A stretch of 64,000 bases of DNA. Source: Colletotrichum lupini (lineage: Eukaryota; Ascomycota; Sordariomycetes; Glomerellales; Glomerellaceae). The stretch spans positions 806,001 to 870,000 of the forward strand of contig NC_064681.1 in NCBI RefSeq assembly GCF_023278565.1, given 5' to 3'. The stretch's first letter is position 1, and each line of letters begins with the position of its first letter. Below the pieces are notes generated by a model that made no database searches, was not told where the DNA came from, and worked only from the letters and a program-made list of their open reading frames with translations. Shown piece after piece: positions 57,192-64,000 of the stretch. Position numbers and translations under genes: made by a program.

Positions 57192-59319
57192 ATGGTCGAC
57201 GACGGTGTAGTCAGGGTGGTCCGAAACCCGCAAACGCAACAAGCTTCTCGAGGAGAAGCCGTCATAAATGACGACTGCTGGGACTTCGAAAACATGGGAA
57301 GCCATCTCCAGGTAACACACATCGGTGGGACCGTCCGGAATGTGGACAGGGACGCTCTCGGCACTACCATCTCGTCAGAAAGTGGCAGAATCTGGCTATT
57401 GATGTTGGTAAGTAATCCATTCCATCTTGTTGTTGTTATTAAATCTGACTGATACACTCCAGGCCCAATCATTGGCCATCACAGCTGCGTTTCTGGGTTG
57501 GGTAGCACCCGGAAACACGAGGTACGTGCTGTGATCATGAACACAATACGGCCTCCCTTGGCTCATACTAATGACAAACAATAGTGTGCTGTTCCATACA
57601 GACCTACCTCAGACAGACAAGGTGCATTGGACGCCAATCATGTAGTTCATGGGAAGCTCCATCGGATTTCTCCTCCTCGGTCGGCTTTCAGACCTGTACG
57701 GACGGAGGCACTTCATTGTCGGAACCTCCCTTCTGGGAGTCGTCGGCTGCCTCCTCGGCTCCTTTGCGCTCAACGCCGAGATGCTCATCGCCGCCAATAT
57801 CTGCAACGGAATGGCTGCTGCCGCCCAGCTACCTCTTGGAGTTGCTGTAGCCGAACTCGTGCCGAACAAGGACAGAGCAAGAACAGTTGCCGGTACTTTA
57901 GTACTGCCATTCCTTGTTGCTGGTTTGGGCTCTGCCATAATCCCATCATTGTTGGACGATGGCAGCCCGGTGCAATGGCGTTGGGGCTATTACACGGGAG
58001 CCTTTCTGGCTTTCGTCTCCTTTCTCTTGTATCTGGGACTCTATCGCCCACCTTCGTTCTAGCAGCTCAATGTGGCTGGGAAGACCAAGCTTGAGATGAT
58101 CAAGCATTTGGACTTTGTCGGCATCTTCCTTTACGTCTCTGGCTGCGTTTTGTTGCCACTCGGGTTCTGTTTGGGAATCTCCTCGTACCCTTCTGTCAGC
58201 AAAGAGATCATTGGAACCCTAGTCGGTGGTTTCTCAGCGCTTGTCTTGTTTGTAATATACGGTAAGGTTGGATCGCATTCGAATATTCTGACATATCTTC
58301 TAACGTATCGCAGAAGCATTTTCCACCGCCGAACAGCCTCTCATGCCTCCAAAGATGTTCAAGAATGTCCAGTTCGCAAGTCTCGTTGCTTGTGCAACTT
58401 TCTCCTCGATGGTTTTTTATGCCCTCACCGTCCTCTGGCCATTTGTTATCGGAAAGGTTTTCAACAAGGACTCGCACACGGTTGCTTGGTCTGCCTCATT
58501 GCTACCCTTTGGTGCCACACTCGGAATAGCCTTGACAGCTGTTCCGTCACTACGTGGTGAACGCTTCAGAAAACAGTGTATGGTAGCGTCAGGTGTTGCT
58601 CTGGCTCTCATGGCTCCATTATGCACAATATGGTTTGACATCCGCCATGGACTAATTGTTCTGGCGGGCATATGTGCGTCTTTTGGTAAGTCTTGCGGCG
58701 ATCGCCAGGCGTTGCCTGAGAGTTTTTGACTGATACATACGTCTTAGCTCTTGGCCACATTGTTGCCGTTGCCATCACTGGTGTCACCCTTGTGTGGGAA
58801 CCGCAAGATATCGGCCTCGCATCAGGAGTCCTCGGCTCAATGTGTAGCTTGGGCTGTGCCTTCGCAAGGGCATTAGTTACCTTGTTATTGAGGAAAAAGC
58901 TGGAGGAGGAGCTGACCAAGTCCGTCACGCCAGTTGTCTTGGACGCTATCCTGCCCGGCCCCATTTTGAAACAACTGGCCACCACCATCCGAGAGCAAGC
59001 AACAATGAACGGGAAAACCAACTTGACGGCGTTCACATCAGTGAGCATACTCTCCAGGTTTGCAATTACCAACGCAATTCAAGCCGGATACAGTTATTCG
59101 CTTCGATCGATCTTCCTTGCCATCATCCCTTTCTCCGCTATTCTCCTGATCGCCGCTTGCTTCGTTCCAAATCTGGACCAGTTCAATACTCTGAAAGTTG
59201 CAAGAAGATTGCAAGGCCCTGATGGAAACGCCCCACAGAATGATGAAGAAGCGGCCGAAGAACCAGGACTTGAGTTGTCGATGCTTGGTCGGCCTGTGTC
59301 AGCCGCAGATGTGATTTGA
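57192..59319 (+). pseudogene. TRI12-like MFS transporter with two in-frame TAG codons
   Basis: Five exons in consistent phase: 57192-57407, 57463-57521, 57585-58261, 58314-58685 and 58748-59319, 631 codon positions before the final stop. The family is a major-facilitator drug/siderophore/trichothecene-type proton antiporter of the plasma membrane. MFS motif A is present (GRLSDLYGRRHF), and hydrophobic segments run through exons 3-5, for example GSSIGFLLLGRLSDLYG and YYTGAFLAFVSFLLYLGLY. Two codons are stops: TAG at 57643-57645, just before FMGSSIGF, and TAG at 58060-58062, between RPPSF and QLNVAG. No frameshift, TAA or TGA interrupts the frame, and all splice sites are canonical. It is either a recently inactivated gene or one whose UAGs are read through or edited. 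No substrate can be assigned. Confidence 0.8.
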
Positions 59320-60003
59320 TCTGTCTCAAGTGTTTTTTTGTTGACGGCGGCTTAGTAGGATGCTGGGTCATTGGGGGTTGGGTCACATCGGATTGTTTTC
59401 GACCAGCATTGCTTTAGTGTTAGAGGAGGAAAGACAATAAACGCATGAACTGTTTCCGCAAAAGGCGTTTTCTAGATCCGCTCATGAGTTGTTTCGCGAA
59501 TTGCAGGCGGCACAAAGGGTTCAGGTACGGGAGAGCGTAGTAATTCGACGGAATCCGGGGATTGCCTCATATCGAACGACTGGGATGGTGACAGACGATG
59601 ATAACAGCTGTTGCGAGACCAATGAGACCAGGTTCTTATTCACCGGATGCTGCAATCGATGTTCGTCAGATCCCGGCCGGTCTTTGGATTGACGATCATT
59701 GGATCGTTGGCTGAGGTGGTGGGGTGTGGAGACTGAAGTTTGTCAATGGAAGTGGGAAATATCTTGTCCATCGACAGCCAAAGCTCCGATGGCGGGGCAT
59801 GGCGGGGTGCAACCGACGTCGGTCGCTCACCCCAAAAATTATTGGGCCGGGGCACCGCCCGCGACATGCCACTCTCCCCTTGACTCACATTGCCAACCCG
59901 CCCAATTTCTCTATTTATCTCCAAGCTGTGGCCCTCGCTGATTCAGTCCAATTCCTCCTTTTCGACAATTGATACCCTCGATACCCCTTCGTCATCTTTC
60001 ACA
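59320..60003. promoter_or_regulatory. Intergenic region and presumed hom2 promoter
   Basis: 684 bp containing the MFS 3' end and the presumed promoter of the aspartate-semialdehyde dehydrogenase gene. A C+T-rich leader with TTCTCTATTTATCTCC lies about 90 bp upstream of the start. No TGAGTCA amino-acid control element was seen. Confidence 0.5.
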
Positions 60004-61320
60004 ATGGGCGAATTCCCCGTCAAGAAGTGCGGTACGTTTTAGCCCCTCCACCCCGCCATTGCCGCCCTTCCGCCATCGGGAAACCTCGACATCGGCAGAT
60101 TGCAAACTTTGGCGCCTTTCAAGATGTATCCAACAATCCAAAGCTAATTCAGAGTCCACCTCAAGGCGTTCTCGGCTGCACCGGCTCCGTCGGCCAGCGC
60201 TTCATCCTGCTTCTGTCGCAGCACCCGTACCTCAAGCTCGTCGCTGTCGGCGCCTCGTCCCGCTCCGCCGGCAAGAAATACCGCGATGCCGTGAGGTGGA
60301 AGCAGGCCTCGCCCATGGGCGCCGTCGCCGACCTCGTCGTCCGCGAGTGCAAGGCCTCTGAGTTCAGCGACTGCGACGTCATCTTCAGCGGTCTCGACTC
60401 TGACGTTGCCGGCCAGATTGGTGAGTATTCCCAAGTGCTGCTATTCCAACGCCTGCGAAGGAAGGACTGCACTCGCCTAGATTGAGAAACAATGGCTAAC
60501 CACCACGGCCAAAACAGAGATGGAATTCCTCAAGGCCAACCTCGCCGTCTTCTCCAACGCAAAGAACTACCGCCGCGACCCCCTCGTGCCCCTCGTCGTC
60601 CCCACCGTCAACCTCCCCCATCTCGACCTGATCCCCCACCAGCGCAAGCAGCACAACCTCGAAAAGGGCTTCCTCGTCTGCAACTCCAACTGCGCCGTCA
60701 TCGGCCTCGTCATTCCCTTCGCGGCCCTGCAAGCCGTCTTCGGCCCCGTCGACCAGGTCTCCGTCGTCACCATGCAGGCCGTCTCAGGCGCCGGCTACCC
60801 GGGCGTCTCGTCCATGGACATGATTGACAACGTCGTCCCCTTCATCTCGGGCGAGGAGGACAAGCTCGAGACGGAGGCGCAAAAGATCCTCGGCACCATC
60901 ACCTCGGACCTCACCGCGTTCGAGGACCAGAGCCAGCTCAAGGTCAGCGCGGCGTGCAACCGCGTGCCCGTGCTCGACGGCCACACAGCCTGCGTCTCGC
61001 TCAAGTTTGCGCGCCGCCCCGCGCCCTCGGCCGAGGAGGTCAAGAAGGCGCTGCGCGAGTACGTCTCTGAGGCGCAGAAGCTTGGGTGCCCTTCCGCGCC
61101 CGAGAGCCCTATCCTCGTGCACGACGAGCCTGACCGGCCGCAGCCGAGACTCGATCGCGACCTCGGTAGGGGGTACACCGTCAGCGTTGGCCGTGTCCGG
61201 GAGGATGAGAGCGGAATCTTTGATATCAAGTTTGTTGCGCTTAGCCACAACACTGTCATTGGCGCTGCTGGCTCGTCGATCCTCAATGCTGAGGCTGCTG
61301 TGCTCAAGGGCTTCGTTTAA
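60004..61320 (+). CDS. hom2: Aspartate-semialdehyde dehydrogenase
   Basis: Predicted 361-aa enzyme from three exons: 60004-60031, 60166-60420 and 60518-61320 (introns 134 and 97 nt). It reduces aspartyl-4-phosphate to aspartate-4-semialdehyde with NADPH, the branch-point reaction towards threonine, methionine and isoleucine, in the cytosol. The NADP-binding loop is [13 protein letters not shown] and is followed by [11 protein letters not shown]. The active-site Cys is at about residue 153 in [10 protein letters not shown], and the catalytic His lies near residue 250 in [32 protein letters not shown] and [14 protein letters not shown] are also family-typical. No defect is visible, in contrast to its two neighbours. 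Confidence 0.95.
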
Positions 61321-61960
61321 GCATCTTTGAGATGGAGAGGAAACGAACAAGTGGAAACGGATAAGATTTGAGGATGGCCGGGTATTTATCATGAGGGATC
61401 ACAAAAATATTGGTGTATGGGTGCACGGTTGGTCGCATTTACGGCACGGAAATATCACAATTGAAACAGCATGAAGGAGAATCTGGACGTACGGTAGATG
61501 AAAAGTAGGTATACCGATTGCGATGGATTTCCCGCTTTAAAATGTCTTGAGGCCTTACCTGAGTGCGAAATGAGAGTGACGGGCGTTTGAGTGACAGTTT
61601 TGTCGGCAGTCACTACTGGCGTATTTTATGCTGGAAACGGGATCCTACCTGAGGTACCTTAGGTAGGTTTCTCGGGTTTGAGAGGCTGCCTCGTTGAGTG
61701 GAAGGCGTATGCATACTACTGCGGCTGCAGTCAGCAAATCCTACACGGAGGTGAACCTGGGCAGGCATGCTGCATCCCGAACCAGCCTTCAATCGCTCGG
61801 TATGGCTAATTAAAGATCAAGCTGCATCGAAGAAAGACATTCCCTGTGTCTGCAATTCTATCATAGGTCTTTTATCTCCCATCTCGCCTTGGCTCATGTT
61901 CTTCTATTCCAACATGCTCTTCTGCGTATTCTCCGATCAACGTCGCCGATAACCATCACG
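61321..61960. other. Intergenic region between hom2 and the DUF6536 gene
   Basis: 640 bp holding the hom2 3' end and the promoter of the next gene. It contains a short palindromic CCTGAGGTACCTTAGGTAGG stretch near 61649. Nothing else was recognised. Confidence 0.5.
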
Positions 61961-64000
61961 ATGGGTAGACCCAAGTTCTCCCAAAGTCGATGGCGACAAG
62001 CTGCGTTTTACTTCGCCGTGGCAGCCTTCTCAACTTTTTTCATCAACTTTGTATTCACACCATGGGCGAGCATCCAGAAACGTGACACGATAAGTGACGG
62101 TGTCGGTATTCTGCTTGATACGGACTGTTCAACCATCCGAATACTAAATATCGGGATCCATATTCTGATCAACGTCCTCGATATAATTCTTCTTGCGGGT
62201 AGTAATTACTGTACGCAAGGCTTAATGGCACCAAACCGACCAGAGATTGACGATGCACACGCCAGACAACAATGGCTCGACATTGGGGTCGCCAGTGTTC
62301 GAAACTTTTGGAACATCACATAGAAGAAGAAGATTTTCTGGCTATTGATTGCAGCTTCATCCCTTCCATTACGTCTGGTGTAAGTATGGTTATTACACTT
62401 CCTCATCTTCTCTTTTACTGTTTCTCCCCCCTCGGAGCCCTTACTGATCAACAATCAGATACAACTCCATCATCTTCAGCTCGACATCAGTGAACGACTA
62501 CAGCGTCTTGAATACGAATGCGTACATTTCAAGGAACAAGACCGAAGGCGCACTCGACAGTGCCGACTAGAAGAGCATGTACTTAAATTTTCTTGGCGGT
62601 AACGTCGAGGAAATAGATGCAACACGATGCATCGACGCCCACCGAGTCGCTTTCCTGTCCTCACGAGGAAACTTACTCCATGTATCTGATGATAAGAAGG
62701 AAGAAAATCGTACGGCTGAGGTCTTCGATATTTCGGGATACCCATATCTTTGGATGTGCGGCCAATCAGGTGAAAGAATTGCCGGCATACCCGCTGGTAA
62801 CTCGACATGCGAGGACTATCTGGTCGAATTGCGAACTACGTCGGGAGGCTGGAAGCCTCTGGGATCAAGCGTCAAGGAATGTTACAGCCAGAAGACCGGA
62901 TAGCATTGCAAGCTCCTCTTCAGCAGCACTTTCTGCTGGACTGTGACAGCGTTTAACTTTGCCAAAGGCGTCTTGATGCTCTTCGTCGCCTTCGGAATGG
63001 GCGAAGAAGATCCTCTGATGACCATTGGAGATGCAGTGACCTCTTTCCTTGAAGATCAGGATGAGTCGACTGCGGATATGTGCCTCAAGTCCAAGGACCA
63101 CTTTGTTGCCCAACATTGGTCCAAAGGTCCAATACAATGTGATCTCAAACCGCAACGGAAGTCTGTCGCCATTGGCCCAGCGGCTTGGTTTCTTTGCTTC
63201 TTGTTGTATGCTTGTGTTTCCCTCCTTTCATTATATCTACATGCTGACAACGCCACCAGGTACTTTGGACTCATCATCGCCTGTGCAAGTTTGCTGGTTG
63301 GAGGCCTGAATCACATGTTAGGTGGCGGCGATATCACAAAGCTTGGTCTCGGCGCCATGCAGACCAAGACCATCCTGAACACGGATGACATGAGTCAAGG
63401 ATCTATACTTGCTAATCTTCTGCTTGTCAACACGCCTCAAATTATTCTGTCACTCATTTACTCCACTTACAATGCCCAGTACACCAGTATATCCTTGATT
63501 GCTGAATGGGACAGGTTTGGCAACGAGAAGGAGGCAAAGAGTCTTCGCGTCTCGTCTACACGCAGAGGAGCTCAGCGAGATACCTACTTTCTTCAACTGC
63601 CGTACCGCTACTCGTTCCCTCTTGTAACATTTTCAGGGGGACTTCACTGGCTCATTTCTCGGAGCTTCTTCCTCGTCAACCTGGAGGTATATGTCCCTTC
63701 AGCTGATGGCAGGTCTATGGTACGACTAGTAGAGGGGAACTCGTTTGCCGGTGTGACAGCCTGCGGGTGGTCGCCACTCGGGGTTTTTTGTGTTCTCGTG
63801 GTAATTATCTTCATGATGGGATTTCTCATTGTCACGGAGAGATGTCCTTTGCGATTCGGGGTCATGTCCTTGGCGGGCAGCTGCAGCGCGGCTACCCCTG
63901 CTGCGTGTCACCCTGACTCGGACGAGGGAAAGATGTGGGAGAAGACTCTGAGATGGGGCGTAGTGGACTCATCTACCGTCGGGCACTGTTCTTTTTATTC
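61961..64000 (+). pseudogene. DUF6536-family membrane protein with three in-frame TAG codons, 3' end beyond window
   Basis: Three exons are visible in consistent phase: 61961-62379, 62459-63205 and 63260 to the window edge. The sequence matches the fungal DUF6536 multi-pass membrane family of unknown function: QSRWRQAAFYFAVAAF, then NIGIHILINVLDIILLAGSN, RQQWLDIGVASVRNFWNI, HCKLLFSS and the late CHPDSDEGKMWEKTLRWGVV and VGHCSF. Hydrophobic helices alternate with the conserved loops. TAG stops occur at 62321-62323, 62568-62570 and 62901-62903. Apart from these, about 1.9 kb of coding sequence has no TAA, TGA or frameshift, and both introns (78 and 54 nt) have GT..AG ends. It is either decaying or translated through the UAGs. 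The true C-terminus lies outside the window. Confidence 0.78.

What the first reader, a model, noticed from the sequence alone, without database searches (positions are those of the whole stretch)
57192..64000. Two neighbouring genes interrupted five times, every time by TAG
The MFS gene carries TAG at 57643 and 58060; the DUF6536 gene carries TAG at 62321, 62568 and 62901. Across about 3.8 kb of otherwise family-like coding sequence I found no TAA, TGA, frameshift or broken splice site. If the three stop codons were equally likely, five TAGs out of five would occur about 0.4% of the time. Established knowledge: Sordariomycetes such as Fusarium and Neurospora perform A-to-I mRNA editing during fruiting-body development, strongly favour A preceded by U, and rescue some premature UAG genes by recoding to UGG. 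Inference: these two genes may be functional only in edited, sexual-stage transcripts. The main alternative is recent loss by a few G:C to A:T changes.
Basis: partly seen in the sequence, partly recalled or inferred. Interest (0 to 1): 0.87.

Follow-up and report, generated by a model that had tools for sequence, protein, structure and literature searches.

The report
Conserved TAG inside a fungal transporter
Two neighbouring genes of a plant-pathogenic fungus are interrupted only by TAG stop codons; in one, the main TAG seems to be shared by a group of species that keep the rest of the gene intact, as expected if the fungus corrects it in its messenger RNA, while the other gene looks more like ordinary decay.

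Summary
The five in-frame TAGs are real and are the only lesions found: the MFS gene (631 codons) has TAG 57643 and 58060, the DUF6536 gene (649 codons) TAG 62321, 62568 and 62901; all six introns are GT-AG. Five of five TAG is about a 1% event (11% under a RIP-like model), so the count alone proves little.

Relatives separate the genes. At 57643, 36 of 42 wider TRI12 relatives have Trp. None of the 12 closest proteins (Colletotrichum acutatum complex, C. orchidophilum, one unnamed) encodes that codon; 8 of 12 models remove it by the same 24-nt pseudo-intron, the annotation scar known from edited Fusarium genes. I read 57643 as a conserved premature stop recoded by A-to-I editing. Neither RNA nor the other species' DNA was seen.

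The DUF6536 gene shows signs of relaxed selection: more divergent than the MFS gene between close species, less between distant ones, and its 62901 codon is Glu in relatives. It is more likely decaying. A HET-domain gene elsewhere has two TAGs; the second is Trp in 4 of 4 closest relatives, the first in 3 of 4.

The parts
57192..59319 (+). MFS transporter gene, Pfam TRI12/MFS_1, five exons, 631 codons and TGA; exons 57192-57407, 57463-57521, 57585-58261, 58314-58685, 58748-59319
57643..57645 (+). TAG at codon 112; Trp in 36 of 42 wider relatives; not encoded in any of the 12 closest proteins
57622..57645 (+). 24-nt stretch beginning with GT and ending with the TAG; removed as an 'intron' in 8 of the 12 closest gene models; taken here to be a false intron
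   Evidence: that it is false is inference from its length and from the Trp-bearing motif it would remove
57637..57651 (+). predicted 5-bp stem with a 5-nt loop holding the A of TAG 57643 (seen in 31-, 41- and 101-nt folds, not in the 61-nt fold)
   Evidence: 69 of 981 window TAGs meet the same criterion
58060..58062 (+). TAG at codon 251; close relatives have Lys 4, Arg 1, Leu 1 or skip it (6) of 12
60004..61320 (+). gene between the two: semialdehyde dehydrogenase family, no interruption noticed in the part examined
   Evidence: domain match on 60481-61317
61961..64000 (+). DUF6536 gene, three exons 61961-62379, 62459-63205, 63260-64043 (the end lies 43 bases beyond the window), 649 codons and TGA
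62321..62323 (+). TAG at codon 121; Trp in 9 of the 12 closest relatives, 7 of 41 wider ones
62568..62570 (+). TAG at codon 177; Trp in 11 of the 12 closest relatives, 1 of 41 wider ones
62901..62903 (+). TAG at codon 288; Glu in 9 of the 12 closest relatives, skipped in three clade-1 gene models

Best explanation
Two different things lie side by side. (1) The MFS gene is a functional gene with an old, conserved premature TAG (57643), probably read as Trp after A-to-I editing of its mRNA, most likely by the Tad2-Tad3-Ame1 system of Sordariomycetes in sexual tissue; an unedited transcript would give a 111-residue stub. Shown: the TAG, the intact remainder, Trp in wider relatives, the shared skip in gene models, conservation on both sides. 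Inferred: that the other species carry TAG in their DNA, and the editing itself. The second TAG (58060), apparently confined to clade 1 of the complex, would have to be edited as well or is a newer weakening. (2) The DUF6536 gene is most likely a decaying gene in this lineage: an older stop at 62901, then two more.
For: 57643: Trp in 36 of 42 wider relatives; encoded in 0 of the 12 closest proteins, 8 of 12 with the same 24-nt skip, the annotation pattern reported for the edited CHE1 stop (PMC11169179, passages) and for AMD1 (PMC5496914, part 1 of 5). Conservation before and behind the stop, and no window residue departing from 290 otherwise invariant columns. About 5.9 stops expected under free drift since C. 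orchidophilum (P of one or none 0.02). The A lies in a 5-bp/5-nt hairpin with U at -1. DUF726-family genes, the family of Ame1, are present. DUF6536: 29 of 468 differences from C. tamarilloi against 11 of 587 for the MFS gene, reversed against C. godetiae; 15 unique changes in 419 conserved columns with mean BLOSUM62 -1.2.
Against: No RNA and no DNA of other species seen. Skips also occur in models of intact DUF6536 genes, so a skip alone does not prove a stop. 58060 is not at a Trp site. The species is probably one described as asexual. The hairpin is absent in the 61-nt fold, and 7% of window TAGs have one as good. DUF6536 relaxation is not clear-cut: C. phormii has as many unique changes (15 of 421, milder), C. 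limetticola only 2 of 199, and 7 radical of 15 is not far above the 31% of random changes; no indel was found.
Confidence: 0.5

Rival explanations
1. Both genes are ordinary decaying genes that lost function by point mutation; TAG only is chance.
For: 5 of 5 TAG is p about 0.01, and 0.11 if RIP-like, in genes picked for it; 58060 and 62901 are not at Trp sites; clonal lineage; DUF6536 fits.
Against: MFS gene conserved across the complex with only these two lesions in the window and the same codon avoided in all 12 closest proteins.
Confidence: 0.25
2. Both genes, all five sites, are premature-stop-correction sites used in the sexual stage.
For: All have U at -1; three of five sit at Trp sites of close relatives, p 0.02-0.10 under transition-type models, 0.32 under a RIP model; a HET gene has two more TAGs at Trp sites.
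Against: Signs of relaxed selection in DUF6536; Glu at 62901 and Lys/Arg/Leu at 58060 in close relatives; only 57643 lies in a stable small hairpin loop.
Confidence: 0.12
3. The 57643 TAG is passed by another route: ribosomal readthrough, or splicing that removes the stop (for instance the annotated 24-nt intron).
For: The gene models in public records assume such an intron; no RNA here contradicts it.
Against: 24 nt is very short for a fungal intron (recalled), and removing it would delete the family's two Trp residues around it. Readthrough would not explain Trp as the wider family's residue.
Confidence: 0.13

Closest known systems
Premature-stop-correction (PSC) genes of Fusarium graminearum: PUK1, AMD1 and about 70 others (PMC11156358, parts 1-2 of 3; PMC5496914, part 1 of 5)
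   Same: In-frame TAG in an otherwise intact gene, hidden by a wrongly predicted intron in annotation; U at -1.
   Different: Another gene (AMD1 is a 1386-residue MFS-domain protein; this one has 631 codons); no editing shown here; genus without a PSC report in my searches.
CHE1 / OLD-ZAO module (PMC11169179, passages; PMC12754623, part 1 of 3)
   Same: Conserved TAG with erroneous small introns in relatives' annotation.
   Different: Not a zinc-finger factor; nine OTT_1508 deaminase matches in this genome, none on the window's contig.
TRI12 transporter family (PF06609)
   Same: Family match on two separate pieces of the gene.
   Different: 36 of 42 wider relatives examined have Trp where this gene has TAG; substrate unknown.
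DUF6536 family (PF20163)
   Same: Strong match, 124.9 bits, on the piece before the first stop.
   Different: Three in-frame stops and signs of relaxed selection; the other two genome matches show one TAA, which I read as intron, and none.

Membership tests
PSC-edited gene (MFS, 57643) | in-frame TAG, otherwise intact gene on both sides | tested here: met
   (a second TAG, 58060, lies behind it)
PSC-edited gene (MFS, 57643) | relatives have Trp at the site | tested here: met
   36 of 42 wider relatives
PSC-edited gene (MFS, 57643) | stop conserved in related species | tested here: inconclusive
   only indirectly: 0 of 12 closest proteins encode the codon, 8 of 12 the same skip; DNA not seen
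PSC-edited gene (MFS, 57643) | U at -1 and hairpin loop | tested here: inconclusive
   U met (true of every TAG); hairpin in three of four fold lengths
PSC-edited gene (MFS, 57643) | A-to-G in transcripts | not testable with these tools
   no RNA data
PSC-edited gene (MFS, 58060) | relatives have Trp at the site | tested here: not met
   0 of 42 wider relatives; close ones Lys, Arg, Leu or skipped
PSC-edited gene (DUF6536) | relatives have Trp at the sites | tested here: inconclusive
   met for 62321 (9 of 12) and 62568 (11 of 12), not met for 62901 (Glu 9 of 12)
PSC-edited gene (DUF6536) | purifying selection kept behind the stops | tested here: inconclusive
OLD-ZAO type module | OTT_1508 deaminase gene adjacent to the target | tested here: not met
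   nine matches in the genome, none on contig 8
RIP-mutated gene | raised TA/AT and lowered (CA+TG)/(AC+GT) | tested here: not met
   0.57/1.35 and 0.66/1.19

The most novel reading that the evidence does not exclude
A premature TAG in a membrane transporter has been kept since before the C. acutatum complex split from C. orchidophilum, so a whole group of largely asexual plant pathogens still gates this protein by UAG recoding; further TAGs at Trp sites (DUF6536, a HET-domain gene) would be newer sites of the same system.
Probability: 0.3. Interest if true: 0.72.

Novelty: new member of a known kind. Interest (0 to 1): 0.5.

Why it matters
If confirmed it would take premature-stop-correcting editing into Colletotrichum, for which my searches listed no report (in one search, 20 of 89 papers were listed), and would mean that some genes annotated with tiny introns in these species are edited genes. 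It also poses a testable puzzle: how a recoding site tied to the sexual stage is kept in species thought to be largely clonal.

Tried and rejected
Genome-wide excess of TAG: not found in three large families. Matches whose in-frame stops are of one type only, my count from the tables: kinases TAG 7, TAA 6, TGA 7 of 136 matches; p450 5, 5, 4 of 106; Fungal_trans 6, 6, 9 of 148. Many are probably introns read in frame: in the 7 of 7 TAG-only kinase matches that I fetched the TAG looks like the end of an intron, by inspection. HET-domain matches: TAG-only 6, TAA-only 3, TGA-only 2, mixed 2 of 133; suggestive, but at least some look degenerate, with further stops nearby. The MFS_1 and Sugar_tr searches scored only 9 of 732 and 9 of 520 candidates and say little.

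DNA methylase (family of the known PSC gene RID): no stop inside the four matches; the rest of the genes was not read. PUK1: no orthologue sought by sequence, none recognised. OLD-type deaminase on the window's contig: none. RIP: not supported by the indices, though single hits cannot be excluded. NCBIfam gave only bacterial MFS matches far below their cut-offs on one piece and none on three. Hairpins as a general argument: rejected, since 45-58% of 800 sampled TAGs fall in hairpin loops in the two shorter folds. One search used wrong MFS exon limits for its stop list, codon usage and probabilities; these are replaced. One search had the same slips at exon ends, which lie outside the folded stretches shown. 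The first try at filing this report was garbled in form and was not filed.
Full report
Where it is. The window is G000 contig 8, 806001-870000, of a 63.44-Mb genome in 12 contigs. The protein named C. lupini (P0065) is 97.5% identical over 484 columns, partly because of gene-model artefacts, and C. abscissum 99.3% over 557. I therefore say 'clade 1 of the complex, probably C. lupini' (inference; the clade assignments of species are recalled). The neighbourhood is ordinary: family B DNA polymerase, Slu7, an I/LWEQ-ANTH protein, an APC5 subunit, CIA30.

What is there. The MFS gene has five exons, the DUF6536 gene three; all six introns have GT-AG ends; the only in-frame stops before the terminal TGAs are the five TAGs. 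Its statistical weight is smaller than claimed: 5 of 5 TAG has p 0.009-0.010 under four mutation settings and 0.11 if only CpA>TpA changes occur.

MFS, first TAG (57643). I searched with the piece between the two stops only. In 36 of 42 wider relatives (P0066-P0107) the residue at this codon is Trp; one His, one Tyr, one Phe, three not readable. Among the 12 closest proteins (P0054-P0065) none encodes this codon. Eight join '...DLPQTDK' (once DLPQSDK) directly to 'FMGSS...', which on the window's DNA means removing 24 nt that begin with GT and end with the TAG itself. The models of C. fioriniae, C. melonis and C. orchidophilum avoid the codon by other junctions, and P0056, from an unnamed contig, starts at the Met just behind it. 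The CHE1 study in Fusarium describes this pattern: automated annotation put in a small false intron to splice out a conserved edited stop (PMC11169179, passages); the AMD1 stop likewise lay in a wrongly predicted intron (PMC5496914, part 1 of 5). So the stop is probably shared by the complex and C. orchidophilum. I have not seen the DNA of those species, and skips also occur in models of DUF6536 genes that have sense codons at the sites, so this is inference.

MFS, constraint. Identity to the window is 98.1% for C. tamarilloi (587 columns), 87.5% for C. fioriniae (561), 71.2% for C. godetiae (579) and 64.3% for C. orchidophilum (571). The exon before the stop is less conserved than the stretches behind it in C. 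fioriniae (73.9% against 86-92%) and C. orchidophilum (52% against 58-82%), similar in C. godetiae (73% against 66-86%). In the window no residue departs from 290 otherwise invariant columns; the same is true of four other clade-1 species. Had the gene drifted freely since the C. orchidophilum split, about 114 changes would have brought about 5.9 stops (P of one or none 0.02); for C. godetiae 4.7 (0.05), for C. fioriniae 2.1 (0.39). Multiple hits are ignored.

MFS, second TAG (58060). The position is mostly polar and variable in 42 wider relatives, never Trp. Close proteins have Lys (4 of 12), Arg (1) or Leu (1); five models (C. melonis, C. limetticola, two of C. abscissum, C. costaricense) join straight to the residue behind it, and the one named C. 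lupini drops the whole stretch. It looks like a clade-1 novelty. Editing there would give Trp at a non-Trp site; this is the weakest point of a wholly functional reading.

Hairpin. In short folds the A of TAG 57643 lies in a 5-nt loop on a 5-bp stem; 69 of 981 TAGs on both strands of the window do as well, and none of the other four sites does. In a 61-nt fold this hairpin is not formed. Mild support only.

DUF6536. At 62321 Trp stands in 9 of the 12 closest relatives and at 62568 in 11 of 12, but in the wider family the sites vary (Trp 7 of 41 and 1 of 41). At 62901 it is Glu in 9 of 12, and the three models from C. tamarilloi, C. paranaense and C. limetticola skip it; in C. limetticola the model resumes exactly at the codon behind the TAG. 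So 62901 may be the oldest stop and is not at a Trp site. The window's copy has 15 unique changes in 419 conserved columns, 7 of them radical, mean BLOSUM62 -1.2; six species outside clade 1 average between -0.2 and +1.25, random missense changes -0.49 with 31% radical. Against this, C. phormii has as many unique changes (15 of 421, mean +0.47), and within clade 1 C. paranaense (11 of 227, mean +0.36) and C. limetticola (2 of 199) look milder. The stronger sign is relative: the window differs from C. tamarilloi at 29 of 468 sites here and 11 of 587 in the MFS gene (p 0.0003), although at greater depth the DUF6536 gene is the more conserved (C. godetiae 93 of 570 against 167 of 579, numbers from the percentages). 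About one stop is expected for neutral drift since C. tamarilloi (P of two or more 0.28, three or more 0.09), so the stops need no special cause. The absence of indels is mildly surprising. The comparison of 15/419 with 0/290 (p 0.0007) rests on different sets of species and is rough.

Wider signs. Among HET-domain matches, TAG-only stops occur in 6 of 133, TAA-only in 3, TGA-only in 2, mixed in 2; kinases, p450 and Fungal_trans show no TAG excess. One HET gene (contig 9, 1115849) has two TAGs in a frame given as 903 aa; in its four closest relatives the second is Trp in 4 of 4 and the first in 3 of 4, the fourth model skipping it; in 58 wider relatives the second is Trp in 51, the first in 2. 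It was chosen for its TAGs, not for Trp. Counting it, 5 of 7 TAGs sit at Trp sites of close relatives: p 0.0007-0.011 under transition-type models, 0.10 under a RIP model. As cases were selected, this is suggestive only.

Machinery. Ame1, the activator of mRNA editing, has a DUF726 domain (PMC11087585, passages); this genome has five DUF726 matches at three places, one with a TAG that I did not examine. Which is the Ame1 orthologue was not tested, nor were Tad2 and Tad3. Editing is called a common feature in Sordariomycetes (same paper). A 2014 study found no evidence of editing in infection-stage RNA of C. graminicola (PMC4194422, passages), which does not test sexual tissue. C. lupini is called presumably clonal (start of abstract), though rare sex is not ruled out (passage).

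Verdict. The two genes should be treated apart. The 57643 TAG is the interesting part: probably a conserved, recoded premature stop, a new member of a known kind. The DUF6536 stops are more likely decay. The weakest links are the missing DNA of the other species and the missing RNA.

Literature. Searches for editing with Colletotrichum or Glomerella listed no report of premature-stop editing in this genus; I saw listings and the passages named, and supplements were not looked at. DUF6536 is named in one held paper, unrelated in subject (listing).

Noticed in passing
L042 (G000 contig 9, 1114800-1118000): HET-domain gene with two TAGs eight codons or fewer apart in a long open frame; the second is Trp in 4 of 4 closest relatives, the first in 3 of 4.
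   Followed up: partly
L043 (G000 contig 5, 2094500-2097000): HET-domain match with one TAG in the stretch 'WFSRR*VIQE', where other HET matches here have Trp.
   Followed up: no
L044 and L046 (G000 contig 2 near 953152; contig 1 near 873530): HET-domain matches with TAG where I expect the family's Trp; both have further stops nearby and look degenerate.
   Followed up: no
G000 contig 1, 1178258-1178683: HET-domain match with 8 TAG and 3 TAA, no TGA, as a RIP-mutated copy might look.
   Followed up: no
G000 contigs 2, 3, 5, 6, 7: Nine OTT_1508 deaminase matches, the family of the OLD editing enzymes of Neurospora.
   Followed up: no
L072 (G000 contig 6, 2679352-2679927): DUF726 match with one in-frame TAG, possibly an intron.
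   Followed up: no
P0055: A close transporter relative is labelled LOW QUALITY PROTEIN in its public record (name cut, read as C. acutatum).
   Followed up: no
P0054: C. tamarilloi has Leu at the position of TAG 58060 while its near relative C. costaricense skips it, so the stop may have been lost again in one species.
   Followed up: no
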